A stretch of 64,000 nucleotides of DNA. It comes from Pseudomonas poae. Lineage in GTDB: Bacteria; Pseudomonadota; Gammaproteobacteria; Pseudomonadales; Pseudomonadaceae. The notes beneath the pieces were generated by a model, which was not told where the DNA came from, did not search any database, and was given only the letters and a program-made list of their open reading frames with translations. The stretch's first letter is position 1. Each line of letters starts with the position of its first letter. The DNA lies in contig CP034537.1 in assembly GCA_004000515.1 (NCBI GenBank), positions 6,717,501 through 6,781,500 of the forward strand. The letters run 5' to 3'. Shown here piece by piece: positions 11,820-61,335 of this stretch. The position numbers and the translations under genes are program-made.

Positions 11820-13047
11820 TAGAGATCAACATCCAAATTAAGCATTGCCCCTCTCAACCGATCGGCACTCACCCTCTGGCAATTAAGCTGCACCCGCTCC
11901 AACCCCAGCCAAGCCGCCATCTGCCGCAAATTCAACGCCAACGCCACCATCCCCTCCTCATCCAGCCCCGGCTCTTCTTCATGCACCGCATGCACCGCCA
12001 AACATCCATTGGCACGTTCGGCGCGCAAGTCAACGCGGGCGGCGATTCGTTCGTTGTGCAAAAACGGCAGCACGTAGTAGCCATAGACCCGCTTGTCTTG
12101 CGGGGTGTAGATCTCCAACCGGTAACGAAAATCAAACAGACGCTCGGTGCGGCTGCGCTCCCAGACCAGCGAATCGAACGGCGACAGCAACGCGCTGGCC
12201 GGCACCTTGCGCGGCACTTTCGGCTCGGGCAGGCAATACGCCAGTTGCTTCCAACCCTGGACCTGACAGGTCAGCAACTGCCCGTCTTCTACCAGCTCAG
12301 CCAAGCGATTGCGGCTGTCGGCGGGGTCCAGGCGGAAGTAATCACGCAAGTCTTTTTCAACGGCCACACCCAATGCAGTGGCACTGTGCAGCAGTAAACC
12401 GCGCTGTGCCTGCGCCTCATCTAGAGAGGCGTGCAGAAACTCGCCGGGGATTACTCGCTCCGGCAAATCATATAGGCGCTCAAACCCACGCCGACCGGCC
12501 ACGGTCACCAAACCTGCGGCGAACAGCCATTCCAACGCGTGCTTTTCATCGCTCCAGTCCCACCACGGACCGGCGCGTTCTTCGCGGGTGGACAAGCTTC
12601 CCGCCCCGAAGCGCCTTGCTGCTCGACAGTCTTCAATACGCGCCCAATCACGGCCTGCTGCTCACGCCCAAAGCGCGCCATCTGCGAATAAATCCCCAGC
12701 CCTTGCTTGGCTCGCTCCATGCGCCAGCGCATCAGCGGGTACAGCGCCATCGGCAACAGCGAGGCCTCATGCCCCCAGTATTCGAACAACGAACGCCGTC
12801 GGCCCTGGCTCCAGGCGGCCTGTTCAAGCATCAAGGGAGAGTAATTGCCCAAGCGGGAAAACAGTGGCAAATAGTGGGAGCGCACCACCGCATTGACTGA
12901 GTCGATCTGCAACACACCGAGGCGTTCGATCAAGCGGTTAAGGTGCGCGGCTTTTATCTGTGCCGGCGCCTGGCGCCCGGAAAATCCCTGGGCCGCCAGC
13001 GCCATGCGTCGAGCTTGCTTGAGTGAGAAAGACAGATCGGCGGGCAT
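11795..13047 (-). CDS. ycaQ: YcaQ/AlkX-type interstrand-crosslink DNA glycosylase (frameshifted as sequenced)
   Basis: Two overlapping reading frames join into a protein of about 417 residues, the normal length of E. coli YcaQ (AlkX), a winged-helix DNA glycosylase that unhooks alkylated bases and crosslinks. The N-terminal part carries LGVLQIDSVNAV, which includes the Gln-x-Asp catalytic motif of the YcaQ-like clade, and FEYWGHEASLLP. The C-terminal part has REERAGPWWDWSDEKHALE, LSPFDSLVWER and RVYGYYVLPFL. The break is near 12605-12612 within a G/C run; adding one base restores the frame. The last residues (YRRSHL) are encoded by a REP half-site. An isolated gene next to a small DUF1127 gene. 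Confidence 0.8.
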
Positions 13048-28522: not shown

Positions 28523-29128
28523 TCATAGCAGCGGTTTTAGCGTCGGCCAGACATTTTCCAGCAACTTGCCCTGGGCGCCGACCGCCGGGTGCAGCCCATC
28601 CGCTTGCATCAGTTCGGGATGACCGCCAATACCCTCGAGGAAAAACGGCACCAGCGGCACTTGTTTCTCCTCTGCCAGCGAGCCATAGACCGCGGCAAAT
28701 GCGTTGGTATAGCGCGGACCGTAGTTGGGCGGCAATTGCATACCCAGCAACAGCACCTTGGCGCCAATCGCCTTGGAGCGATCAATCATCGAAGCAAGAT
28801 TTTGTTGCAATTGCGCCGGCGGTTGTCCACGCAGGCCATCGTTGCCGCCCAGCTCGATGATCACCAACTGCGGCTTATGCTCTGCAAGCGCCGCAGGTAG
28901 CCGCGCCAGGCCTCCGGCACTGGTGTCGCCACTGATGGATGCATTGACCACTTTATCGTCGAAACCTTCGCTCTTGAGCCGTTGCTCCAGCAGCGCGACC
29001 CATCCTTTGCTGGTATCCAGGCCGAAACCGGCACTGATACTATCGCCAACGATCAGGACTGTACCCGCCGCTGCGTTCTGGGCCATGCACATCAAGGCCA
29101 GGCCAGCACTCAAAAACCACATTCGCAT
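28523..29128 (-). CDS. tesA: Multifunctional lysophospholipase/arylesterase TesA (SGNH hydrolase)
   Basis: A 201-residue periplasmic GDSL esterase. A signal peptide (WFLSAGLALMCMAQNAAAG) precedes the four SGNH blocks: VGDSISAGFGL with the nucleophile Ser, the Gly in ISGDTSAGGL, GGNDGLRG with Asn, and DGLHPAVGAQ with Asp and His. It acts on lysophospholipids, thioesters and aryl esters. The start at 29128 has GGAG six bases upstream. It is divergent from ybbA with only ten bases between start codons, as in E. coli tesA-ybbAP. Confidence 0.95.
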   Translation of the reverse strand: MRMWFLSAGLALMCMAQNAAAGTVLIVGDSISAGFGLDTSKGWVALLEQRLKSEGFDDKVVNASISGDTSAGGLARLPAALAEHKPQLVIIELGGNDGLRGQPPAQLQQNLASMIDRSKAIGAKVLLLGMQLPPNYGPRYTNAFAAVYGSLAEEKQVPLVPFFLEGIGGHPELMQADGLHPAVGAQGKLLENVWPTLKPLL

Positions 29129-29138
29129 CGGATTCTCC

Positions 29139-29821
29139 ATGGGCGCAGCATTCTCACCGCGCGGAACCTTAGCAAAGTGGTTCCCAGCGCGGAAGGTGAA
29201 CTGACTATCCTGCACGAACTGAGCCTGGAACTGAACAAGGGCGATAGCCTGGCTATCGTCGGCAGCTCCGGTTCCGGCAAATCCACCCTCCTCGGCCTGC
29301 TGGCCGGCCTCGATCTGCCCAGCAGCGGCGAAGTCACCCTCGCCGGGCAAGCCTTGAGCAGCCTCGACGAAGACCAGCGCGCTCGCATCCGGGCCGAGCA
29401 CGTAGGCTTCGTGTTCCAATCATTCCAACTGCTCGACAGCCTCAATGCATTGGAAAACGTCATGCTGCCCCTGGAACTGGACGGTCGCAAAGACGCCCGC
29501 GAACGCGCCCGGCACCTGCTGGAACGCGTGGGCCTGGGCAAACGCCTCACCCACTCACCACGCCAACTGTCGGGTGGCGAACAACAACGGGTGGCCATTG
29601 CCCGCGCCTTCGCTGCCGAGCCGGACGTGCTATTTGCCGATGAACCTACCGGCAACCTGGACAGCCACACCGGCGAGCGCATCAGCGATCTGCTGTTCGA
29701 ACTCAATAAAGAGAGCGGCACGACCCTGGTACTGGTCACCCACGACGAGCGCCTGGCCCATCGTTGCCGACGCCTGATCCGCCTTGAAGCCGGCCTGATG
29801 GTCGCGCCCCTGGAGCCTTGA
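29139..29821 (+). CDS. ybbA: ABC transporter ATP-binding protein YbbA (probable frameshift after start codon)
   Basis: An ATPase of the LolD/MacB-type exporter group. Motifs: Walker A GSSGSGKSTLLGLLAG, Q-loop in VFQSFQLLDSLNAL, signature LSGGEQQRVAIARAF, Walker B VLFADEPTGNLDS and H-loop VTHDERLA. The main frame opens upstream inside tesA without a credible start. The ATG at 29139 followed by one missing A near 29146-29148 would give the family start MGASILTARNLSK and a protein of 227 residues. It is followed, overlapping by one base, by its permease ybbP. Confidence 0.85.
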
Positions 29822-32330
29822 TGGCACGTTTGCCGCTGTTGCGCCTGTTCAGTCTTGCCATGCGCCAATTGCTGCGCGATGCCCGCGCCGGTGAGTTGCG
29901 CGTGCTGTTCTTCGCCCTGCTGGTGGCGGTGGCCGCCAGCACCGCCATTGGTACTTCGGGGCACGCCTCAACGGTGCCATGTTGTTGCGCGCCACCGAGT
30001 TCCTGGGCGCCGACCTGGTGCTCGAAGGCAGCTCGCCTGCCCGGCCCGAGCAAATCAAATCCGGCACCGAACTGGGCCTGGATCACGCCCGCGTGGTGGA
30101 GTTCTCCAGCGTCATTGCCACCGATAACGGCATCCAGCTCTCCAGCATCAAGGCGGTCAACGAGCAGTACCCGCTGCGCGGCGAGCTGAAAAGCTCCGCC
30201 GCACCTTTTGGAGATGAAACGCCAGGGGGCGGGCCAAAACCCGGCGAAGCCTGGGTAGAGGCACGGCTGCTGACGGCACTGGATCTCAAGGTAGGCGACA
30301 GCATCGACGTGGGTATGAAAACCCTGCGCCTGGCCCGCATCCTCACTTATGAGCCGGACCGCGCGGGCAACTTTTACAGCCTTACGCCCCGGGTGATGAT
30401 CAACCTGGCGGACCTGGACGCTACTGGCGTCGTCCAGCCCGGTAGCCGCGTCAGTTACCGCGAACTGTGGCGTGGCCCCCAAGGCAGTACGGTGCTGCAA
30501 ACCTACCGAGACCTGGTCAAACCCGGGCTCGCCGCCAACCAGCGCCTGCAGGACTCCCGTGATGGCAACCAGCAGATCGGCGGCGCCCTGGGCAAGGCCG
30601 AGCGCTACCTGAACATGGCCAGTCTCGTTGCGGTGCTGCTGGCTGGCGTGGCCGTGGCATTGTCCGCCAACCGCTTCGCGACCCGCCGTTTCGATGCAAG
30701 TGCACTGCTGCGATGCCTGGGGCTGTCACGACGCGAAGCCATGTTGCTGTTTAGCCTGCAATTGAGCGTACTGGGCCTGTTGGCAAGCTTGGCCGGCGCC
30801 CTACTGGGATGGCTAGCGCAATTTGGCTTGTTCTACTTCCTGCACGACCTTTTACCGGCAGACGTACCACCCGGCGGTCTGCTGCCGGCGGTTGCAGGAA
30901 TCGGCACTGGCCTGGTCGCCCTCGCCGGCTTCGCCTTGCCGCCATTGGCAGCCTTGGGCCGCGTACCGCCCCTGCGAGTACTGCGGCGCGACCTGCTGCC
31001 AATCCCTTCCAGCACCTGGATGGTCTATGGTGCGGCGCTGTTCGCCTTGGGCCTGATCATGTGGCGTCTGAGCCTCGACTTGCTGCTCACCTTCGCCCTA
31101 CTCGGCGGTGGTGTTGTAGCGGCGCTGATCCTCGGTGGCTTGCTCCTGCTATTGCTGCAAAGCTTGCGACGCCTACTGGCCCGCGCATCCCTGCCTTGGC
31201 GACTGGGGCTGGGTCAATTGCTGCGCCATCCGTTGGCGGCCGCCGGGCAGTCACTGGCGTTTGGCTTGATTCTGCTGTCCATGGGCTTGATTGCACTGCT
31301 GCGTGGCGAACTGCTCGACACCTGGCAAAACCAGCTACCCAAGGATGCACCCAACTATTTCGCCCTGAACATCCTGCCAGCCGACAAGGAAGCCTTTGGC
31401 AGCCGACTGCTGGAACTGCAGGCACAGTCCGCGCCACTGTATCCGGTGGTGCCGGGCCGGTTGATCAGCATCAATGGCGAGCCGGTGCAGGAGATTGTCA
31501 GCAAGGACTCCAGCGGCGACCGCGCGGTACAGCGTGACCTGAGCCTGACCTGGGCCGCCGACCTGCCGCCAGGCAATGTCCTGACAGCGGGCTCGTGGTG
31601 GTCACAGCAACCGGCCGATGAGGTGCCTGGCGTTTCGGTAGAGGCCAAGGTCGCGGAAAGCCTCAAGCTCAAGCTCAACGACCACCTCGTGTTTACAGTG
31701 GGAGGGGAAAACCGTGAAGCGCGGGTCACCAGCCTGCGAACTATCAACTGGGATAACTTCCAACCCAACTTCTTCATGATCTTCCAACCGGGCACGTTGA
31801 AGGACCTGCCGGCGACCTACCTGACCAGCTTCTACCTGGCTCCTGGCCATGACCAGCAGATCGTCGACCTGTCGCGCGCGTTCCCGGCGGTGACCATCCT
31901 GCAGGTCGAGGCGCTGCTGGAGCAGTTGCGCAGCATCCTCGCCCAAGTGACGCTAGCGGTGGAGTACGTGCTGTTGTTCGTGCTGGCGGCAGGGATGGCG
32001 GTGCTGTTCTCCGGGCTGCAAGCCACCTTGGATGAACGCATACGCCAAGGCGCACTGCTGCGTGCACTGGGTGCCGAACGCAAGCTGCTGGTCAAGGCCA
32101 GGCGCATCGAGTTCGGTTTGCTGGGTGCCGTCAGTGGGTTACTCGCAGCACTTGGAACAGAGCTGGTGACCTTTGTGCTTTACCGTTATGCGTTTGACTT
32201 GGCCTGGCACCCTCACCCGTGGTTGCTACTGCTGCCGATCATCGGCGCGGTGCTGATCGGTGGAGCCGGGGTGTTCGGAACGCGCCGCGCACTCAATGCC
32301 AGCCCGCTCACCGTACTACGCGAAGGCTAA
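29821..32330 (+). CDS. ybbP: ABC transporter permease YbbP, FtsX-like (frameshifted as sequenced)
   Basis: A large permease of about 836 residues when rejoined. The first frame runs MARLPLLRLFSLAMRQLL to STAIG; restoring one T near 29951 continues as YFGARLNGAMLLRATEFLG. It has an N-terminal anchor helix, a first four-helix FtsX block around residues 255-490 and a second near 690-830 (VEYVLLFVLAAGMAVLFSG), joined by periplasmic parts, the usual YbbP layout. The complex with YbbA probably extracts a hydrophobic compound from the membrane; linkage to TesA suggests acyl or ester products. Stop at 32330 is followed by a hairpin. Confidence 0.87.
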
Positions 32331-40472: not shown

Positions 40473-41280
40473 ATGCAACTCATTGATATCGGCGTCAACC
40501 TGACCAACCCCAGTTTCGACGAGAGGCACCAAGCCGTTCTCGATCGTGCCTATGCCGCCGGCGTACAACAATTAGTGCTCACCGGCACCAGTGTCGAGGG
40601 CAGCGAACAGGCCCTGGAACTCTGCGTAACACTCGATGAAAGCGGCCAACGCCTGTTCAGCACCGCCGGTATCCACCCCCACTCTGCGAGTGACTGGAAC
40701 GGTGAGAGCGCCCTACGCTTGCGTGGTTTGCTCAATGAACGCCGCGTGCGTGCGGTAGGTGAATGCGGGCTGGATTTCAATCGGGATTTCTCGCCACGCC
40801 CCCAGCAGGAAAAAAGTCCTCGAAGAACACCTGGCCTTGGCCGTCGAACTCAAACTCCCGGTATTTCTGCATGAGCGCGACGCCAACCAGCGCTTGGTGG
40901 AGATTCTCAAGGACTATCGAGACCACCTCACCGCCGCCGTCGTGCATTGCTTCACCGGCGAGCAGCAGGCGCTGTTCAGCTATCTCGACCTCGACTTGCA
41001 CATTGGCATCACCGGTTGGATCTGCGACGAACGCCGTGGGACGCATCTGCACCCATTGGTCAGCGAAATCCCCCGAGGCCGTCTGATGCTGGAGAGCGAT
41101 GCGCCCTACCTGCTGCCGCGCACCTTACGTCCCAAGCCGAAGAATGGCCGTAACGAACCGGCGTACTTGCCCGAGGTGCTGCGCGAAGTGGCCTTGCATC
41201 GTAACGAAAGCGTGGAAGACCTAGCCCAACACAGTACCGCCTGCGCACGCGCGTTTTTCGGGTTGCCTGCGGTGGATTAA
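40473..41280 (+). CDS. tatD: TatD-family metal-dependent DNase (frameshifted as sequenced)
   Basis: A TIM-barrel nuclease of the TatD family with 3'-5' DNase activity involved in DNA repair. Metal ligands are visible: [10 protein letters not shown] at the start, [41 protein letters not shown] and [11 protein letters not shown]. The frame breaks at the A6 run 40810-40815; removing one A gives [20 protein letters not shown] and a 268-residue protein of normal length. The gene has an AGGCGGAGG ribosome site and is divergent from mltF. Confidence 0.93.
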
Positions 41281-41376
41281 TGCGGCGCATTGACCCATGT
41301 CAAAATCGTTTTTCTGAGTAGCGGCACAATAATGGCACCTTGCCAATGCTGTTTCCGCTATCAGAGAAAACCTTCC

Positions 41377-42858
41377 ATGGGTGCCTGGCTTAGCAATATC
41401 TCGCTGAAGTACAAATTCTGGGCCGTCAACGCGGTCGCTTTCATCACCACCCTGCTGCTGGTGCTGTACGCCGTGCAGCTTGAACAACAGGCGCGCAGCG
41501 ATGCGTCACAAGCCTCGGCGCAGGCCCAAGCACGTTTGCTCAGTGCCTGGCCCGCCGACAAGGCATTGCCCAAAGGCGAGCACTGGCTGACGTTCCCGCG
41601 CGGTCAAGTCCCACAACTGGCCGACCAGGATCTATCGGCGCTTAATAGCGCCAATGGCTGGGTCGAACTTAATCGCATGCCGTTATTCGGCGAAAACCCA
41701 CTGATGGGCGCCGACGTGATCGTCCGGAACGACGGCCAGCAGGTCGCCGTACTGGCCTACGCGCCCAGCCTGAGCCAGGTGTTCGGCGAGCGTTTTGCCA
41801 ATTACGCGGTGGCTGTGGCGATTCTGATGCTGGCCATGCTTGGCGCCTCACAATTGCTGATTCGCTTTCTGCTCAGCCAACTCAACACCCTCAAGGACGT
41901 GATGCTGCACGTCGAGAAAACCGGCGACCTCTCAGCCCGCGTGCCGTTGGCGTGCAAGGATGAGGTCGGCCAGATGGCCAGCGCTTTCAACGCCATGCAG
42001 GCTGGCTACCAGCGCGTGGTCAACACCGTGGCGCGTACCGCCCAGCAACTGGACGACGGCGCCGCGCGGCTGGCCAGCAGCATGAACGAGGTGCAGCACG
42101 GCATGCTTGGCCAGCAGAGTGAAACCGACCAGGCCGCCACTGCCATCAACGAGATGACCGCCACCGTCTACCACATCGCCCAACATGCAGGTGCCACCCG
42201 TGACCTGTCCCAGACCGCCGACACTCTCGCCGGCAGCGGCCAGGAAGTGGTGACCCGCGTGCAGCGCTCAATCGCCGGCCTGTCCACCGGTGTGCAGCAG
42301 ACCGCCGAGATGATCCAGAAACTCGCCGAGGACAGCCAGAAAATCAACGGCGTGGTCAGTGTGATCCACAGCATCGCCGAACAGACCAACCTGCTCGCCC
42401 TTAACGCTGCCATCGAAGCCGCCCGCGCCGGGGAAATGGGCCGTGGTTTCGCCGTGGTTGCCGACGAGGTGCGCAACCTTGCCAAGCGCGTGCAAAACTC
42501 CACCGACGAAATCACCCGCATGGTCTCGGCGCTGCAAGCCGGCACCCGCGACGCGGTGGACTTCATGCAGGAAAGCTCGTTCAAGGCTGACGACTGCGTA
42601 CAACAAGCCCAAGAGGCCGGCATCGCACTGGCAGAAATTACCGGCGCTGTGGCCCAAATGCGCGAGAGCAACACCCAAATCGCCGTCGCCGCAGAACAAC
42701 AAAGCCACGTCGCCGAAGAGATGAACCGCGCGGTAGTGAGCATTCGTGATGTGACCGAAAACACCGTGCAGCAAACGGTGGATTCGGCAACGACCAGCAA
42801 CCAACTGGCCACCTTGGCTGGGGAGTTGAGCAAAGCGATTGGGCAGTTGAAGCTGTAG
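41377..42858 (+). CDS. Methyl-accepting chemotaxis protein
   Basis: A 493-residue transducer. Membrane helix 1 lies at residues 12-32, a short periplasmic domain of about 110 residues at 33-145, helix 2 near 146-168, then a HAMP domain ([20 protein letters not shown]) and a long cytoplasmic coiled coil. The signalling tip is the conserved [19 protein letters not shown], followed by [17 protein letters not shown]. The small sensor domain has no recognised ligand motif. The ATG at 41377 begins [14 protein letters not shown]. Position corresponds to PA2867. Confidence 0.93.
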
Positions 42859-43015: not shown

Positions 43016-46000
43016 ATGCACTTCTCTATCGATGCCCAGCACAACAGGGCAGCGCCTTGATCCCGGTGATTGCCAGGCTGGTCCTGGCCCCCATGGATGC
43101 CAGCAAGCCGGACGTTGAAACCGTCTTGCGCGATTTCCGCGCATGCCTGAATGACTTCGACGCGTGGGCCGAAAGTTTCTGGAGCCTTGGTGCGCTTGAA
43201 GTGGAGCAGGTATTCAAGGTCGGCGATGAAGTCTCGCTTGTAGCCCCAGCCTCCTCCCAAAGACCCAGTCGTACAGTCGCTGTTTGCAAGGCCCAGGGAT
43301 CATTGACCCTGGTGCATATGTTCGAGAGCACGCGGTTCGTGCCCATCGGCAACACTCCCGTAATGCTCCAAGGTATTGCGCCCGACGGCCGCCCCATCGG
43401 AGAACCGATCCATCACGTCATTGGTCCCAGCGGCATCCTTGAAGTCAAGGACTGCACCCGCGACCAGCGTTACCAAATCACTTTCTATCCCAACGTTTCC
43501 AAAGATCACGTCAAGGCGCTGTATGCGTCTTATCAGTCGGTGATCAATGGCCTGAATGTTCATCTGCGCGATGAATGGAGCGAAACGTTCAAGCCGCTAT
43601 GGAAGGACTTTGCCCGCGCCACGCCTTTGGCACGTAGCGCGATGCAGGGCGTCGCGTTTTCAAGCGGGATCGCCAAGGCGCTCTACAACCTCTGGGACAA
43701 CGTCACGCAGCTGTATGACCTGTTGGCGGACCTCAAGGCCAACAGCGAGAAATTGCTGCAGTACATCTCCCAGGCCGAACTTGATGCGCTATTGAAACTG
43801 GGCAAAGACGCGATCGCCAATGGCCTGTTGGTGCTCAGTGATGAGCCGCTGATGTTTATCTACCTGTCCGCCATGGTCGCCTGGTTGCGCATGCTACCGC
43901 CGCCACAGATGTACGAAGTGGTTGGTGAAATCACCGGCGAAGTGTTGATCAACCTGCTTCTGATCTGGGCGACGCGGGGCATGGGCGTGCGAATTCGCCT
44001 GGGCACGCAAGTGCTGGGCCATATCAAATCCAGTCGAGCGCGGCAACTGTTGACGTTACTGTCCGAGCAACTGGTGTCGCCGCATTTGGCCTCGCATGCC
44101 GATGCGGTAAAGCCCCTGTTGTTGAGTGGTCCGGCGAGACCGATCAAAACGATTCCGGCGGTGCCATTGAAGGCGGGAGAGCAGCTGATTTCAAACCCGG
44201 TGGCGATGGCTCGGGACAAGGGCAAACCGAAGACGACGCTGGTTCCGCACGAGCCTATGGATGACGTGCCCGTTTCTGGAAAGAACCCGAACGGGGATGC
44301 CGCTTCGAGTGCGGATAAAACAGCCACTAATGGCTGTCCGGTGTCGATGGTGACCGGGGAGGAATTGCTCACCCTGACCGATGGTGCGCTGGACGGGATT
44401 TTGCCGTTTGAGTGGACTCGGTTGTATCGCACCAGTGCGGTGGAAGTGGATTGCGGGTTGGGGTTCGGCTGGAGTCATTCACTGGCGCATCGGTTGGAAG
44501 TTGCGGGCGATTCGGTGGTGTGGACGGATCATGAGAATCGCTCCACCACCCTGCCCTTGCCCTCTTCTGCTAGGCCTGCGATCACCAATAGCTTGGCAGA
44601 GGCGGCGATTTATCTGGGCGATTTGCCGGATGAGTTGGTGCTGGCTCAATCGTCGCGTTTCTACCACTTCGTCAAGGGTTCGCTGACGGCAATCAGCGAT
44701 GCCTACGGCAATCGGCTGCGTATTTCCCGGGACTATTTGGGGCGTATCGAGCGGGTGTCTAACGGGGTCGGACGCTCGTTTTTTTGCGGTACTCGTCGGA
44801 CCGCATCGTTTCGGTGGACTACCAAATTCAACGGGCAAAGGGTTATGAACCCTACGTCTGGGTTACCGAGCAAAGTGTTGTTTCCTACACCTATGACGAA
44901 CTTGGACGATTGGTTTCGGCGACCAATGCCGTCGGCGAAAGTGAGAGTTACCGGTACGACGAGCAGCACGTCATTCTTGAACGTGGTCTGGCTGGTGGCG
45001 CGAGTTTCTTCTGGGAGTGGGAACGGTCCGGCAAGGCGGCGCGATGTGTCCGGCATTGGGCCAGTTTTTCGCAAATGGACACGCGGTATGCCTGGGATGA
45101 CAACGGGCGCGTCACGGTGTTTAACGCCGATGGCAGCCAGGAAGTTTACGTGCATGACCAGCGGGCGCGGCTGGTGCAGCGGGTAGATCCGGATGGTGCT
45201 GAGCACTTTAAGTCCTACGACGAAAAAGGCCGGTTAACGGTTGAACAGAACCCGCTGGGAGCGGTGACGGCGTATCAGTACGACGAAGCTGGACGCTTGG
45301 TGGCGTTGTTTCCCGGGGACGATGAGCCAACGACCTACGAACATGACAACGGTTTCGTACGGGTTGTGCGGCGTGGCGAAGCCGTCTGGAAATACGAGCG
45401 TAATGACCAAGGCGATGTCACCCGCAAGATTGATCCTGATGGCCATATCACCGATTACACCTACAACAAGCACGGACAACTGATTGGGGTTTGGTATCCC
45501 GATCACAGTAGCCAACGGCTGGTGTGGAATGAGCGTGGGCAGTTGCTTGAGGAGCAATTGCCGAATGGTGGCATCAAGCGTTATCGCTATGACGACGTTG
45601 GGCGGCAGGTTGCTCGGGAGGATGAGCACGGCGCGCTGACCCAGTATCAGTGGGATGGCGTTGGGCGGTTGATGCGTGTGGTGCTGCCTGGTGGGGCCTG
45701 TAGGGAATACAGCTACAACCCTTACGGAAAGATCACGGCTGAGCGGGATGAACTCGGGCGCGTGACCAGCTACGAATATGCAGATGGTTTGCACCTGATC
45801 AGCCGTCGCATTAACGCTGACGGCACCCAGGTCAAATACCGCTACGACAACGTTCGGTTATTGCTGACCGAAATTGAAAACGAAGTCGGCGAAGTCTATG
45901 CACTGCAATATCACCCTAATGGCCTGATCCAGCAGGAAACCGGCTTCGACGGCCAACGCACCGCCTACGTTTACGACCTCAACGGCAACCTGCAAGAAAA

Positions 46001-47766
46001 GACTGAATACGGCGATGACGGCAGTCAGCTCGTCACCTGCTACGAGCGTGATCACGCCGGGCGACTCGTACGAAAGACCCTTCCCAACAGCAGCGTTGTT
46101 GACTATGCCTACGACCGCCAAGGCAACCTCCTAACCGTCGACGATAGCCACTGGTTTCTGGCCTACGAATACGACACCCAAAACCGGCTCACCGCTGAGC
46201 ATCAAGGCTGGGGCACCCTGCGCTATGGATACGACGCCTGCGGCCAACTTCAAAAGCTGCGCCTACCGGACAACAACCGTCTTGTTTTTAATCATGCCAA
46301 AGGTGGTCACCTCGCTACGGTAGAACTGAACGGTGAAATCCTCACCTCTCACCTCTTCAAATCCGGCCAGGAACACCAACGCCAACAAGGCCAACTCCTT
46401 AGCCACTACCACTACGACGATCAACAGCGCCTGCACGCCCACGCCCTCACCCACCAGGACCGCTACCTCTACCAACGCCAATACGACTACGACAAATCCG
46501 GCAACCTCACCCGCCTGATCGACACCCGCAAAGGCGACCACCACTACCAGTACGATCCCCTAAACCGCCTGACTCGCGCCGACCACTCCCAGGATCTGCA
46601 AGAACGCTTCGCCCACGACCCAGCGGGCAACCTGCTGATGCAAGACCGACCGGGCCCGGATGTCGTCGCTGGCAATCGTTTGATTAGCCAAGGCGACAAC
46701 CACTACGACTACGACGCCTTCGGCAATCTGATCCGCGAACGGTGTGGCAAAGGCCATCTACTCGTCACCGAATATCGCTACGACTGTCAGCACCGGTTAA
46801 TCGGGATTACTCAACCGAACGGCCAGACCGCCAACTACCGCTATGACCCGTTTGGCCGTCGCATCAGCAAAACCGTCGACGACATCACCACGGAGTTCTT
46901 CTGGCAAGGCGACAAGCTCATCGCCGAACACCACAAAGATAAACACCGCAGCTATATCTACGAACCCGACAGCTTTCGCCCACTGGTAATGCTGGAAGGC
47001 TACGGCCCCAAAGAAACCAAGCCCTACCACTACCAACTCGACCACCTCGGTACCCCACAAGAACTCACCAACCCCGAAGGCGAAATCGTCTGGTCCGCCC
47101 ATTACCGCACCTATGGCGAAATCTCCCGCCTCGACATCGGCAAAATCGACAACCCACTGCGTTTTCAAGGCCAGTACTTCGACCAAGAAAGCGGGCTGCA
47201 CTACAACCGCCATCGCTACTACAATCCGGATATTGGTCGCTACCTCACCCCTGATCCGGTGAAGTTGGCGGGTGGGATCAACACGTACCAGTACGTGCCC
47301 AATCCTACGGGGTGGGTGGATCCACTAGGACTGACTGCTCATTGCACCGGCGCAGTAAAGAAAAATCCAACCTGCGCGATATCCGTTGACCCTGACGTAC
47401 CTGATGTATCTCGAAAAGGAGCTTTCCGCGAAGCAAAAGAGACGCCAACATACCAATGTCTCAACAACCTGACGCAGCTAGCGAATCGAAATCTGGCGCA
47501 AAAAACAATACAGCAAGGTAAAAATGACGGATATAAATGGAAAAGCAGTTTTAGATAGCTCTGAAAAAACGGTTCAAACAAGGGTCTACCAATATACGAG
47601 AGCCGATGGGTCCCAGGTACTCATCCAAGACCACTCGGCCGGGCATAAATTCGGAGCTCAGAACGGAGTGGGCGATCAAGGTGCTCACTTCAATCTGCGG
47701 CCAATCGATACACCACGCACCGGCAAAGTCCCGGGCACAAAAGATCACTACCTGTTTAAGGATTGA
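43016..47766 (+). CDS. Rhs-family polymorphic toxin with HNH/EndoVII-like C-terminal nuclease (four frameshifts as sequenced)
   Basis: When four single-base losses are restored this is one protein of about 1584 residues. The ATG at 43016 has a GAGGG site. Breaks: G3 run 43047-43049, T7 run 44779-44785, A4 run 47437-47440 and near 47512-47515. Residues 1-430 form a Rhs N-terminal domain with helical parts; a DUF6531-like entry follows (CPVSMVTGEELLTLTDGAL), then dozens of YD repeats, the core RFQGQYFDQESGLHYNRHRY and the cleavage-type end WVDPLGL. The last 145 residues restore to AFREAKRDANIPMSQQP and DHSAGHKFGAQNGVGDQGAH, signatures of HNH/EndoVII-like toxins, implying a DNase. No VgrG, EagR or PAAR gene is adjacent. 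Confidence 0.83.
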
Positions 47767-47768
47767 AA

Positions 47769-48194
47769 ATGAGACATTGGAACGATATTGAAGGAACAGT
47801 ATTCTTCAACAAACTGTTCACCCACTACATTGAGATCGGGGAAATTTACATACACTCACTGACGGTAGAGTACGATCAACCCTCTATCAGCATTGGATTT
47901 GACATACCAGAATTTCCAGATCTTTTACCCCCTAAATGGGAGGGCAAGGGATATAACACATGTAGAATTGGGCTGACCTGCAATGAAATAAGTAACTTGC
48001 AAATAGCCAATCTTCCCCGCAGAGAAATTTTCATTGCAGAAATAAAGCATGAAGATGAACATTTTATCTTTAACGCAAAATCAAAAAACGCTTCTATTGA
48101 ATTTAGAGCAAAATGGCTATCCATGGATGGCCCATCAGTTTATGTAAACTGCCCCGAACCTGGCGATCATACTTGGTCAAAACAAGGTCGATAG
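47769..48194 (+). CDS. Immunity protein for the Rhs toxin (Imm50-like)
   Basis: A 141-residue acidic protein beginning MRHWNDIEGTVFFNKLFTHY, which resembles the Imm50 family of polymorphic-toxin immunity proteins. It starts two bases after the Rhs stop, the classical toxin-immunity arrangement. Base composition is strikingly AT-rich against the Rhs core, as usual for exchangeable toxin-immunity tips. No signal peptide; it would act in the cytoplasm by binding the toxin domain. Confidence 0.78.
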   Translation: MRHWNDIEGTVFFNKLFTHYIEIGEIYIHSLTVEYDQPSISIGFDIPEFPDLLPPKWEGKGYNTCRIGLTCNEISNLQIANLPRREIFIAEIKHEDEHFIFNAKSKNASIEFRAKWLSMDGPSVYVNCPEPGDHTWSKQGR

Positions 48195-50659: not shown

Positions 50660-50874
50660 CGATGACACCTCAAATAAAGAAAAACAGTCGTACTCGTGTA
50701 GACGTTGCCTACAACGAAAAGTGCCTTGTCGTATCCTGAAATCGAAAGCGCCTATCGCCAGAGCATACCCGAGTAGCGTGGCTATTCTGGAAAAATAGTG
50801 TAGACGCCACCGGCGATTGAAGCCGCCCCTCAATGGGTGCATTGTGGGCGTCTGCCTTGGGGAGGACATGGACC

Positions 50875-51911
50875 ATGAAAAAGCGTGTTGCCTTGGTGCT
50901 GGGCTCCGGCGGAGCCCGGGGCTACGCCCATATCGGGGTGATCGAAGAGATCGAACGACGCGGCTACGACATCGCCTGTGTCGCCGGTTGTTCCATGGGC
51001 GCCGTGGTGGGTGGGATCTATGCCGCGGGCAAACTGGAGGAGTATCGAAACTGGATCGAAAGCCTCGACTACCTCGACGTGCTCCGCCTGGTGGATGTGA
51101 GTTTTCGCCTGGGGGCGATTCGTGGCGAGAAGGTCTTCGGACAAATCCGCAAGATCGTCGGTGAACTCAACATCGAAGAGCTGCGCATTCCCTACACGGC
51201 GGTCGCCACCGACCTCACCAATCAGCAGGAGATCTGGTTTCAGGAAGGCTGCCTGCACCAGGCCATGCGCGCCTCGGCTGCCATCCCCAGCCTGTTCACG
51301 CCGGTGATGCAGGGCAACCGCATGCTGGTGGACGGCGGCTTACTGAACCCTTGCCCATCGTGCCTGTGGTGTCGAGCCACTGCGATTTGATCATCGCGGT
51401 CAACCTCAACGCCACCAACCAAAAGCACTATCACTTGCCGGTCATCCAGCGACCGCCGGCGTTCAAGAGCCGCTTCAACAGCCTGGCGAAGTCATTGGGC
51501 TCACACCTGCCGTTTCGCCGCAAACAGGCCGAGCAATTGATGAAGCTGGAGCAGGAGGCCTTGCAAGCTGAGGCGGCGGATATAAACCCCTGGCTGGAGT
51601 CGGCCGAGCCCGAATCCCAGCAACCTGCCGCCGCACCGGAAAAAGCAGGGGCGCCGAAGTCGGCGACCGGTTCATTCATCATTGATAACGTCGGGCCGGC
51701 GTCGCTGCTGGATTTGATCAACCAGAGTTTCGAGGTGATGCAGACGTCGTTGGCGCAGTACAAGATCGCCGGGTACCCGCCGGATGTGCTGATCAACGTG
51801 CCGAAGCGGGTGTGTCGGTTTTTCGAATTCTACAAGGCGCCGGAGTTGATCGCGTTGGGGCGGGAGATTGCCAGTGATACGTTGGATCGGTATGAGAGTG
51901 AGCAACGCTGA
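50875..51911 (+). CDS. Patatin-like phospholipase, RssA/NTE type (frameshifted as sequenced)
   Basis: A 345-residue patatin hydrolase when rejoined. The oxyanion loop GSGGARGYAHIG is at residues 10-21, the nucleophile Ser lies in VAGCSMGAVVGG, and the catalytic Asp is in VDGGLLNP. The frame breaks at the C3 run 51348-51350; one added C gives LPIVPVVSSHCDLIIAVN. A C-terminal extension of about 150 residues contains an Ala/Glu-rich linker and FIIDNVGPASLLDLINQSFE. Probably cytoplasmic or membrane-associated. Divergent from the small lipoprotein gene. Confidence 0.88.
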
Positions 51912-52770: not shown

Positions 52771-55421
52771 TCATGCCTCGCGCTCCAGGCCAGGCTGAGT
52801 CGGCAGTGGCAGGAACAAGGTGATACAGGTGCCGCGTCCGTCGATGCCATCGGCAACGCTGATATGCCCACCGTGGGCACCGACCATGCCTTGGCAGATC
52901 GCCAGGCCCAGGCCAGTGCCCTGCCCGCCTCGATCCCCACGCGCGGCGGTGTAGAACATATCGAAAATCTTCGCGCGTTCGTCTTCGGGAATGCCCGGCC
53001 CTTCGTCGGCCACTGCGAAAAACAGTTGGTTGTCGGACACGCCAGCGCTCACGTGCAAACGCCCGTGGGCCGGTGAGAACCGCGCAGCGTTTTCCAGCAC
53101 GTTGACCAACGCTTGCTCGATCAACGCCGCGTGCACGTAAAGCAACGGCAACTCCGCCGGCACATCCGCACGCACCTGCAACGGTGCCAACACCGCACGC
53201 AATCGCCCAAGAGCACTGCCAACGATATCGCCGGGTGACACCCAATCCCGCGCCAGCTTCAAGGCGCCGTGACCCAGGCGCGTCATGTCCAGCAGGTTCT
53301 GGATATAACGATCGAGGCGTTCGGCTTCATCGCGGGTGCCTTCCAGCAACTCACGACGGTCTTCCAACGGGATGGCTTCACCCAAGGCCAGCAAGCTGTC
53401 GATGCTGCCGCGCATGGCAGTCAACGGCGTGCGCAGATCGTGGGACACCGAGGCCAGCAAGGCGCTGCGCAGTTGCTCAGTTTCGCCGTGCAACCGGGCG
53501 GACTCCAGCTCTTGCGCCAGTTGCGCCCGCGCCAGCGCCTGGGCCAACGGTTGACTCAACGCAGTGAGTAGACGTCGCCGCTGTCCGCTCAACTCCAGGC
53601 CCGGTTTGGGACTGACACCAAGCAAGCCCAACGGGCCCTCTTCACCCGACAGCGGCCACCACCACCAACGTCCAAACGGCAGCGTGCCGGTGCCCATGCC
53701 GGCTGGCTGGTCGTGTTGCCAGGCCCAGTCGGCGGCGGCGCGCTCGGCTTCGGTGAGGGTCAGTGGCGCGCCGGTTTCAACCTTCCAGCCACCTTGGCCA
53801 TCGCGATTGACCAGGCACAAATCCAGGTCGCTCCAGCCTTCCAGATGATGGGCTGCCGCACTGATCACCGCCTGGCGGTCGGTGGCGGCAGTGAGTTTGC
53901 GCGACAGGTCGAGCAGCTCGCTGGTTTCTTCCTGCGTGTCACGCAATGCCTGCAACTGCCGGCGTTGCCGCGCGGCGAGGTTGCCGGTGAGCGCGGCCAT
54001 CAGCAGGAAGAACAACAGCGTGAGCACGTCCTCTTCACGCTGGATGGCGAAGGAAAAGTTCGGCGGGATAAACAGGAAATCGTAAGTCAGGAATGACAGC
54101 GCAGCGCACACCAGGGACGGCCCGAGGCTGCTGCGCACGGCCACCAGCAATACAGCTGCGAGAAACACCAGAGAGATGTTCGGCAACGGCAACACACTGG
54201 CGACGGCCCAGGCCAACGCGGCAGCCACCACCGTCGCCACCACCGCCAGCCCGTAGTCGAACCACACCAAGCCGCGTACATCGGGCATACGCGGTGGTGC
54301 AGGAATATCGTCGCTGTCGAGGACGTTGATTTCCAAGCCACGAGCATTGCGCAACAGGCGCGCGGCAAGCCCACCCCGAACAAACGCCGACGCCAGCGCA
54401 TCCGCGACTGCCCCACCAACAGCAGGCTGGCGCGACGCTCGGCGGCGTGCTGGATCAGGGTCTTGGCCACCTCTCCCGCCCGCAACAAAACAACCTCGCC
54501 ACCCAAACGCTCAGCCAGTTGCTGGGCATTTTGCAGGCGCAGGCGCGATTGCTCATCCCGCGCGCGGCCGTTGTCGATATGCACCAGGCTCCACGGCAAA
54601 TGCCGGCGCTGCGCGACGCGACTGGCATGCCGCACCAGGCGCTCGGCCTGCGCATCGCCATCCACGCCCACCAGCAGGCGACCGCGCACCGCCGGCGCTG
54701 CCTGGCCGAGTTGGCGATAGCCTTGGGCCAAATCGTCATCAACGTGGGCGGCGGCGGTTTGCATGGCCAGCTCGCGCAGGGCCATCAGGTTGGTCTGGGT
54801 GAAGAAGGCATCGATGGCCGCGCGGGCCTGCTCGGGCACGTAGACCTTGCCGTCGCGCAGGCGCTCCAATAACTCGCGAGACGGCAGGTCGATCAGCAGC
54901 AGTTCGTCGGCCTCTTGCAGCACCCAGTCCGGCAGGGTTTCGCGGACCAGCACACCGGTGATGCCGCGCACCTGGTCGTTGAGGCTTTCCAGGTGCTGGA
55001 CGTTGACCGTGGTGAACACGTTGATACCGGCGGCGAGCAATTCCTGAATATCTTGCCAGCGCTTTTCATGACGACTGCCGGGGGCGTTGCTGTGGGCCAG
55101 TTCGTCCACCAGCACCAGCTTGGGCTTGGCGGCGAGCAGGCCGTCGAGGTCCATTTCTTCAAGCATGACGCCACGGTATTCACTGCGCAGCAATGGCTGT
55201 TGCGGCAGGCCACTGAGCAAGGCTTCGGTCTCGGCGCGGCCGTGGGTTTCGACCACACCGGCGATCAGGCGCACGCCCTGGCGTAACTGCGTGTGGGCGG
55301 CCTGCAGCATGGCGTAGGTCTTGCCCACGCCGGGTGCGGCGCCGAGGAAGACCTTGAGCCGGCCGCGGCCGTCCCGGGGCAGGTCGGCTAGGAGGGCGTC
55401 GGCGCGGCCGGAGTCGCTCAT
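52771..55421 (-). CDS. kdpD: Potassium sensor kinase KdpD (frameshifted as sequenced)
   Basis: A protein of about 883 residues when rejoined. The N-terminal KdpD domain has the Walker-type FLGAAPGVGKTYAML and GVVETHGRAETEALL; a USP-like domain follows (RGRLLVGVDGDAQAERLVRH). Four membrane helices lie near 400-500, and the kinase core holds ASVSHDLRTPLTAMRGSID and FAVADEGPGIPEDERAKIF. The frame breaks near 54367-54372 after LFGVG; one added base gives LAARLLRNARGLEINVLD. It senses potassium and ionic strength. It is followed by kdpE 37 bases later. Confidence 0.94.
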
Positions 55422-59641: not shown

Positions 59642-61335
59642 TTAGAAGCCCATGCTCAGGTGTTCAGCGATAGGGCCCAACGCCAGCGTTGGCAGGAAAG
59701 TCAGGCCGCCTACCAGCAGAATGGTCACGGTCAACAGGGTCACGAACAGTGGGCCATGGGTGGGGAAGCTGTTCTGGCCAATCGGCGCGGTCTTCTTCAT
59801 TGCCAGGCTGCCGGCCAGGGCCAGTACCGGAAGGATGTAGCCGAAGCGGCCGATCAACATGCCCAGGCCCAACATCAGGTTGTGGAACGCGGTGTTGGCG
59901 CTGAAACCGCCAAACGCCGAGCCGTTGTTGGCACTGGCTGAGGTGTAGGCATAGAGCAACTGGCTGAAACCATGGGGGCCGGGGTTGCTGATAGCACCCG
60001 CCGGACCCGGCAAGCTGGCGGCGATGGCACCCAGAACCAAGGTGCCCACCGGCATTACCAGCAAGGTCACCACCAGTAATTGCACTTCTTTCGCCTGGAG
60101 TTTCTTGCCCAGGTATTCCGGCGTACGGCCAATCATCAACCCGGCGAGGAACACCGCGATCAACACGTTCAGCAGCATGCCGTACATGCCGGCGCCCACA
60201 CCGCCGAAGATCACTTCGCCGACCATCATGTTGACCAGCGCCACCATGCCACTGAGGGGGTTGAGGCTGTCCTGCATGCCGTTGACCGAACCGTTGGACG
60301 CCGCCGTCGTGGTCACCGACCAGAGCACTGTGCCGGTGGTACCAAAGCGTGCCTCCTTACCTTCCAACGGTGCGGTTTGCTCGACGGCCGGGTTATTCAG
60401 CGTCGGGTTGGGCTGATACTCGGCCCACAGCGAGATCGCACCGCCGATCAGGAACAGCGCCAGCATGCAGCCGAGGATCGCGCGGCTCTGACGCAGGTCT
60501 TTAACGTAGTGGCCAAAGGTGAACACCAGTGCCACCGGGATCAGGATGATGGCCGCCAACTCAAACAGGTTGGCCCAGGCTGTCGGGTCTTCAAACGGGT
60601 GCGCCGAGTTGACGCCAAAGAAGCCGCCACCGTTGGTGCCCAATTGCTTGATCGCAATCTGGCTGGCTGCCGGGCCCAAGGGGATCACCTGATCCACACC
60701 TTGCATCGTCACGGCATCGACGTAATGCGCGAAGGTCTGTGGCACGCCCTGCCAGACCAGAAACAATGCCAGCACCAGGCACAACGGCAGCAAGCCATAG
60801 AGCGTGGCGCGGGTCATATCGACCAGAAGTTGCCCAAAGTCTTGGTGGATTTGCGACCAATCCCACGGCACAAAGCGACCAGGACCGCGAGGCCGGTGGC
60901 AGCACTGACAAAGTTCTGCACGGTCAGTCCCGCCATCTGGCTGAGGTAGCTGAGGGATGCCTCACCGCTGTAGGACTGCCAGTTGGTGTTGGTCATGAAA
61001 CTGACTGCGGTGTTGAAGGCCAGTGTCCATTCCTGTCCCGGCAATTTCTGCGGGTTGAGTGGGAGATAGTCCTGGAACAGCAGTATCGCGAACAGCAGCA
61101 CGAAACCGGCGAGGTTGAATGCCAGCAGCGCCAAGGTGTACTTCTGCCAGCTCTGCTCTTCATGCGCGTCAACACCGGACAGGCGATAACAGGCATTTTC
61201 GACAGGCCCCAGAACTGGACTCAGCCACGTGCGCTGGCCCTCCATCACCTTGTAGTAGAACCGCCCCAGGAACGGCGCGGGCACCAACACTAGGGCAAAG
61301 AAGGCAATGATCAGCCAATAGTCATAACTGTGCAT
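59642..61335 (-). CDS. kdpA: Potassium-transporting ATPase channel subunit KdpA (frameshifted as sequenced)
   Basis: The channel-like subunit of Kdp, about 564 residues when rejoined, with ten or more membrane helices. Selectivity-filter-type loops appear as [14 protein letters not shown] and [15 protein letters not shown]. The frame breaks at the CC pair 60823-60824; one added base turns NFWSI-stop into [17 protein letters not shown]. The ATG at 61335 begins [15 protein letters not shown]. It is nine bases downstream of kdpF and 17 bases upstream of the kdpB start region. Confidence 0.95.

What the first reader, a model, noticed from the sequence alone, without database searches (positions are those of the whole stretch)
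43016..48194. Rhs toxin with a nuclease tip hidden by four frame breaks, plus Imm50-like immunity
As sequenced, the 3' end looks like a truncated Rhs followed by an unrelated 80-residue gene. Restoring one A near 47437 and one base near 47513 converts the junction into AFREAKRDANIPMSQQP and links it to DHSAGHKFG and GDQGAHFNLRP, giving a single HNH/EndoVII-like toxin domain. The next gene starts two bases later and resembles Imm50. No VgrG, EagR or PAAR-carrying gene is adjacent, so the delivery route (type VI secretion elsewhere in the genome?) is open.
Basis: partly seen in the sequence, partly recalled or inferred. Interest (0 to 1): 0.7.

Follow-up and report, generated by a model that had tools for sequence, protein, structure and literature searches.

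The report
Rhs nuclease toxin with immunity gene
This is an ordinary bacterial weapon gene, a DNA-cutting toxin next to its antidote, that looks broken in this genome probably only because the assembly is full of small sequencing errors; comparing relatives suggests that a spike-and-adaptor gene pair elsewhere on the chromosome loads it.

Summary
The 80-residue ORF (47524-47766), alone and unmended, matches Pfam Tox-HNH-EHHH at 2.3e-25; the next gene (47769-48194) matches Imm50 at 3e-17. The breaks look like assembly errors: 7 of 34 other conserved genes in the window are split too, against 0 of 47 tests in relatives. Six relatives carry the gene unbroken, about 1570-1590 residues where the ORF was seen, in the same slot. 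Its anatomy matches Aeromonas TseI: PAAR-free N-terminus, Cys-Pro site with Glu-Glu, Rhs core, Asp pair, EHHH nuclease. It is a new member of a known kind.

The open question was delivery. This genome has a VgrG-DUF4123 pair between a sodium-solute symporter gene and RlmJ, with no effector beside it. Across 296 Pseudomonas genomes its DUF4123 family and this Rhs N-terminus co-occur: 129 both, 1 Rhs only, 4 DUF4123 only, 162 neither. Five examined genomes lacking both have that interval empty; one has the Rhs slot empty too. I infer that the pair loads at least five dispersed Rhs toxins from a distance.

The parts
43057..45186 (+). N-terminal part of the Rhs protein as it stands: PAAR-free N-terminus of about 410 aa, then DUF6531 (start of the Rhs shell) with the Cys-Pro and Glu-Glu of a TseI-type N-terminal cleavage site; TTG start as in P. 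kairouanensis; the end of this ORF is out of frame
44784..47558 (+). Rhs core as it stands: RHS repeats, RHS protein domain and Rhs-associated core ending in the self-cleavage motif (two Asp 22 residues apart, WVDPLGL); the last residues are out of frame
47524..47766 (+). Toxin tip as it stands: Tox-HNH-EHHH (PF15657) nuclease, 80-aa ORF with DH, H, H and HY residues invariant in eight aligned sequences
47769..48194 (+). Immunity gene, Imm50 (PF15594), 141 aa, starting two bases after the toxin's stop

Best explanation
The locus encodes a type VI secretion (T6SS) Rhs effector of the TseI kind with its immunity protein. The N-terminus docks the protein on the spike. The Rhs shell encloses the tip and cuts itself at both ends. 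The freed EHHH nuclease cuts DNA in the neighbouring bacterium, while Imm50 protects the producer. The reading-frame breaks are most likely assembly indels, not decay. The protein has no VgrG beside it because it is loaded in trans by the VgrG-DUF4123 pair between a symporter gene (PutP) and RlmJ (own contig C1 near 922 kb), which serves at least five dispersed Rhs effectors. Shown: domains, synteny, conserved motifs, purifying selection, indel background, co-occurrence and joint absence. Inferred: nuclease activity, protection by Imm50, self-cleavage, loading in trans.
For: Profiles: PF15657 2.3e-25, PF15594 3e-17, DUF6531, RHS. Intact relatives: 34 of 298 genomes (own included) encode the tip; 20 of 38 match rows lie in open frames of 1370-1623 aa; Pfam on five intact relatives gives the same order of domains. 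Tip residues D36, H37, H41, H55, H75 invariant in 8 of 8. Noise: 7 of 34 conserved genes split in the window versus 0 of 47 tests in six relatives' loci; 5 of 7 own VgrG genes in pieces. Selection: pN/pS 0.11-0.43 over all pieces (dS saturated for tip and Imm50). Literature: TseI has the same tip family, needs VgrG1 and the DUF4123 chaperone TecI, and tsiI overlaps its end (PMC7170923 passages and section 14). Loader: co-occurrence 129/1/4/162; within TssC-positive genomes 127/1/3/127; interval empty in 5 of 5 examined genomes that lack the Rhs N-terminus, and the Rhs slot also empty in G032; a related pair directly upstream of a related Rhs in G005 and, with Hcp, of an EHHH Rhs with Imm50 in G141.
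Against: No reads were seen, so a genuinely broken gene cannot be excluded. Co-occurrence is not corrected for phylogeny, and the 129 include genomes where the pair and an Rhs are adjacent. One genome (G206, 1150 contigs) has the Rhs N-terminus without the DUF4123, and four have the DUF4123 without the Rhs. The window's N-terminus is only about 30% identical to that of the linked Rhs in G141. In 4 of the 20 examined loader loci unidentified ORFs or gaps of 1-2.4 kb lie inside the interval and could be other effectors. The N-terminus profile found no relative in the PDB, so homology to TseI's N-terminus is not shown.
Confidence: 0.75

Rival explanations
1. The gene is a true pseudogene: the frame breaks are in the DNA, the toxin is lost and Imm50 is kept as an orphan shield.
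For: The gene is split over ORFs of different frames as sequenced. Matches in short open frames of 56-85 aa exist in G207 (with one stop inside), G214, G253 and G161, so lone or decayed tips do occur in this family.
Against: Seven of 34 unrelated conserved genes in the window are split too, including KdpA, KdpD and TatD, as are T6SS genes elsewhere. All pieces carry purifying selection, pN/pS 0.11-0.43. Catalytic residues are intact.
Confidence: 0.15
2. The Rhs is intact but loaded by another spike, for example one of the six other VgrG loci, or exported outside type VI secretion.
For: Seven VgrG loci are present. A second DUF4123 lies beside the VgrG at 6.34 Mb. PAAR motifs occur at 0.31 and 6.49 Mb.
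Against: The VgrG near 922 kb is the best own match (45-53% in two pieces) to the VgrG that sits beside an EHHH Rhs in G141; the other six match it at 30-46%. Its DUF4123 is the only own hit of the G141 DUF4123 at that threshold (48%). The DUF4123 family agrees with the Rhs N-terminus in 291 of 296 genomes.
Confidence: 0.3
3. The co-occurrence of VgrG-DUF4123 and dispersed Rhs is shared ancestry only, without a physical partnership.
For: Both sets may follow clades of one genus; no tree-based correction was made.
Against: G032, the fourth-best match to the neighbouring MCP gene among the other 56 genomes searched (83% DNA identity), lacks both at two unlinked loci, and both sites are empty. 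About half of the TssC-positive genomes (127 of 258) lack both.
Confidence: 0.25

Closest known systems
TseI-TsiI of Aeromonas dhakensis (PMC7170923; passages and section 14 read)
   Same: Rhs core flanked by a PAAR-free N-terminus and a Tox-HNH-EHHH tip; Cys-Pro N-terminal cleavage site with a Glu pair near it; Asp-protease C-terminal cleavage; immunity gene at the end of the toxin gene
   Different: TseI lies downstream of vgrG1 and the DUF4123 gene tecI; here no such genes are adjacent. TsiI was not compared with the window's Imm50 protein, nor TseI's N-terminus with the window's
PSPTO_5438-PSPTO_5439 of Pseudomonas syringae (PMC7170923 section 14)
   Same: Said there to cluster with TseI; its cleavage residues D1385 and D1407 are 22 apart, as are the two Asp in the window
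   Different: Its sequence was not compared here; its tip family was not seen
Salmonella SPI-6 RhsA-Tox-HNH-EHHH with Imm50 (PMC10469887 passages)
   Same: Several listed EHHH-tipped Rhs candidates have an Imm50 neighbour
   Different: Some carry PAAR, and others listed there have no Imm50 domain in the neighbour; all are predictions in SPI-6
Tox-EHHH and Imm50 families of polymorphic toxins (PMC3482391 table passages)
   Same: The Tox-EHHH row lists Imm8 and Imm50 as immunity partners
   Different: The Imm50 row itself lists Tox-HHH and Ntox24; general families, no delivery details for this locus

Membership tests
Tox-HNH-EHHH (PF15657) | Profile score above the curated cut-off | tested here: met
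   89.1 bits against cut-off 25, piece as it stands
[quoted passage not shown]
   D36-H37, H41, H55, H75 invariant in 8 of 8 aligned tips; motif definition from PMC7170923 and PMC3482391 passages
Tox-HNH-EHHH (PF15657) | DNA cleavage | not testable with these tools
   Reported for TseI in PMC7170923, not shown here
Imm50 (PF15594) | Profile score above the curated cut-off, directly downstream of a toxin | tested here: met
   63.3 bits against 27.1; ATG two bases after the toxin stop
Rhs effector of the TseI type | Rhs shell with N-terminal Cys-Pro/Glu-Glu and C-terminal Asp pair before the tip | tested here: met
   CPVSMVTGEE and PDPVKLAGG...WVDPLGL in the window pieces; CP[VI][SD] found in 7 of 7 intact relatives, and DPLGL before the tip in 6 of 7 (G121 reads DPTGL); the Glu pair was not checked in relatives
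Rhs effector of the TseI type | Unbroken single reading frame | tested here: inconclusive
   Split in this assembly; intact in relatives; assembly noise likely
Rhs effector of the TseI type | Homologous N-terminal (VIRN) domain | tested here: inconclusive
   Profile A2 found nothing in the PDB; I did not compare it with TseI's full sequence
Rhs effector of the TseI type | Adjacent VgrG and DUF4123 adaptor | tested here: not met
   None in the window; candidate pair lies at another locus
PAAR-Rhs effector | N-terminal PAAR motif | tested here: not met
   No PAAR in Pfam scan; own PAAR hits lie near 0.31 and 6.49 Mb only

The most novel reading that the evidence does not exclude
In many Pseudomonas a VgrG-DUF4123 pair without an Rhs of its own, fixed between PutP and RlmJ, is a dedicated loader that serves several unlinked Rhs toxins (at least five in this genome, with tips of at least three kinds). 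The toxin arsenal can then grow and swap tips at scattered chromosomal slots while one spike stays put.
Probability: 0.5. Interest if true: 0.5.

Novelty: new member of a known kind. Interest (0 to 1): 0.35.

Why it matters
As a toxin-immunity pair it adds one more EHHH/Imm50 case. The useful parts are a caution that a noisy assembly can make a normal toxin look truncated, and a testable assignment of orphan Rhs effectors to one distant VgrG-DUF4123 loader. Which spike carries which orphan effector is usually hard to tell from sequence (my general knowledge, no call).

Tried and rejected
Programmed frameshifting was considered for the breaks and rejected: unrelated genes in the window are split as well. 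PDB sequence searches for the tip, the Imm50 protein (only weak hits, E 0.037 or more, to CDGSH and MHC chains, taken as chance) and the N-terminal profile gave nothing usable; the single N-terminal piece matched Rhs chains mainly at the start of the shell. NCBIfam had no family for the tip or Imm50. The genome-contig scan with Imm50 found one locus, P. kairouanensis. Paper searches for the loader idea: one with six terms gave none; those with 'orphan Rhs' and 'encoded elsewhere' gave listings only, and I opened none of those papers for this question. I make no claim that the loader idea is unpublished. No structure prediction was run.
Full report
What is there. The window lies in a genome of 7.5 Mb in two contigs. 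I take the genus to be Pseudomonas: the same-genus genome G067 has a contig of the same length as the P. kairouanensis record found. Downstream of a methyl-accepting chemotaxis gene (41290-42858) is an Rhs gene that the assembly shows in overlapping ORFs of different frames: 43057-45186, 44784-47558 and 47524-47766. Taken singly, the first matches DUF6531, the second RHS repeats and the RHS domain, and the 80-residue third Tox-HNH-EHHH at 2.3e-25. The next gene, 47769-48194, starts two bases after the toxin stop and matches Imm50 at 3e-17. It is the only Imm50 match in the genome. The following gene is called DUF962 here by recall; Pfam gives Mpo1-like at 23.6 bits, just under its cut-off of 24.

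Why the frames are broken. G017, the best match to the chemotaxis gene among the other genomes, carries the same neighbourhood with an Rhs gene of 1570 residues in one frame. I took G017 ORFs and asked which are split between frames in the window. With pieces at 80% identity or more, 7 of 34 genes are split: KdpA, KdpD, a patatin, TatD, an FtsX-type permease, a GDSL lipase and an AlkZ-like protein. The Rhs gene is not among the split seven. The same G017 ORFs tested against six relatives' loci gave 0 split of 47 tests (the same genes recur among the 47). A looser count gave 14 of 51, the Rhs gene and some doubtful ORFs included. Elsewhere in the genome 5 of 7 VgrG genes lie in pieces. Two of three TssC genes are in pieces, and the third has an open frame of 379 against roughly 490-550 in nearly all relatives listed. 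Selection on the Rhs pieces, measured against five relatives, is purifying: pN/pS 0.11-0.28 for N-terminus and core, 0.25-0.29 for the tip and 0.29-0.43 for Imm50, against 0.03 and 0.09 for two neighbouring genes compared with G017; for tip and Imm50 the synonymous sites are saturated, so those ratios are rough. Assembly indels explain all this best. Reads would decide.

Relatives. In 298 genomes of the genus 34, the own one included, encode the tip at E 1e-5 or better; 20 of 38 match rows, in 19 genomes, lie in open frames of 1370-1623 residues. The shorter frames may be contig ends, lone tips or decay; I did not sort them. Of nine relatives whose loci I fetched and tested, six have the full slot of TatD, chemotaxis gene, Rhs, Imm50 and the DUF962 gene: P. 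kairouanensis (also fetched as G067), G099, G017, G119, G175 and G121. G122 shows its 3' half at a contig end, and G101 and G141 carry the toxin elsewhere. The tip (58-67% identical) and Imm50 (44-56%) differ more from the five relatives compared than the core does (84.5-90%), as expected of polymorphic toxins.

How it likely works. TseI of Aeromonas dhakensis (PMC7170923; passages and section 14 read) has an N-terminus of unknown function, an Rhs core and an EHHH tip. It cuts itself between Cys and Pro with help from two Glu, and before the tip by an Asp protease. Its tip is a DNA endonuclease neutralised by TsiI, and export needs VgrG1 and the DUF4123 protein TecI. The window pieces carry Cys-Pro followed by Glu-Glu, and two Asp 22 residues apart before the tip, the same spacing as D1385 and D1407 of PSPTO_5438. 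The DH, H, H and HY residues of the tip are invariant in eight sequences. I infer the same mechanism. Activity, cleavage and protection are not shown here.

Delivery. No VgrG or DUF4123 is adjacent. The genome has three TssC loci, seven VgrG loci and two DUF4123 loci. One DUF4123, near 922 kb, sits behind a VgrG between a sodium-solute symporter gene (PutP by recall; Pfam SSF) and RlmJ. There only a Cys/Met-metabolism gene on the other strand lies between it and RlmJ, so there is no room for an effector. In G141 a related pair (VgrG 45-53%, DUF4123 48% identical), with Hcp, stands directly upstream of an Rhs with EHHH tip and Imm50. I searched 296 genomes for the Rhs N-terminus (130 positive) and for the DUF4123 (133 positive): 129 both, 1 Rhs only, 4 DUF4123 only, 162 neither. 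TssC is in 258 of 296; within those the table is 127, 1, 3, 127, and within the other 38 it is 2, 0, 1, 35, so T6SS presence alone does not predict either. I then looked at the symporter-RlmJ interval in 25 genomes, chosen partly by their known status: the own genome, 12 with strong DUF4123 hits, and 12 others of the set. All 20 that are positive hold VgrG and DUF4123 beside the symporter gene. In 19 of 20 no Rhs core was found in the stretch fetched; in G005 an Rhs follows directly. In four of the 19 (G165, G016, G029, G011) unidentified ORFs or gaps of 1-2.4 kb remain inside the interval. All five negatives have the symporter next to RlmJ, 128-406 bases apart. In one of these, G032, the Rhs slot is also empty, with the chemotaxis gene and the DUF962 gene 152 bases apart.

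The own genome has four further PAAR-free Rhs loci with related N-termini. Their pieces, as they stand, show a Scabin-like ADP-ribosyltransferase tip, a bacterial RNase A tip, and two tips without a Pfam match that resemble each other mainly around the cleavage motif. One loader for at least five Rhs proteins is therefore my preferred reading, at about even odds. The weak points are that phylogeny was not corrected for, that some positives have the pair and an Rhs adjacent, and that the N-termini fall into two groups about 30% identical.

Known or new. EHHH tips on Rhs proteins and their pairing with Imm50 are in print (PMC10469887 and PMC3482391 passages). The toxin is a new member of a known kind. 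I did not establish whether the loader arrangement has been described; my searches for it were few.

Noticed in passing
window 11840-13047, 28526-29739, 29818-32327, 40473-41277, 50827-51908, 52774-55421, 59645-61335: Seven conserved genes (AlkZ-like, GDSL lipase, FtsX-type permease, TatD, patatin, KdpD, KdpA) are split between frames: signs of indel noise in the assembly.
   Followed up: yes
L072 9355-11902 (own contig C1 near 922 kb): VgrG-DUF4123 pair without an effector between a symporter gene and RlmJ; the interval is empty in five examined relatives that lack the Rhs N-terminus.
   Followed up: yes
L032, L033, L034, L035: Four more PAAR-free Rhs loci in the same genome: a Scabin-like ADP-ribosyltransferase tip, an RNase A tip with a CdiI_2 neighbour, and two tips without a Pfam match.
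   Followed up: partly
L042 6142-6528: Relative G175 seems to have a second, possibly damaged Imm50-like gene directly after the first.
   Followed up: no
L037 5289-5681 and L043 5884-6273: A small gene of about 130 residues lies between Imm50 and the DUF962 gene in G099 and G121; possibly a further immunity gene.
   Followed up: no
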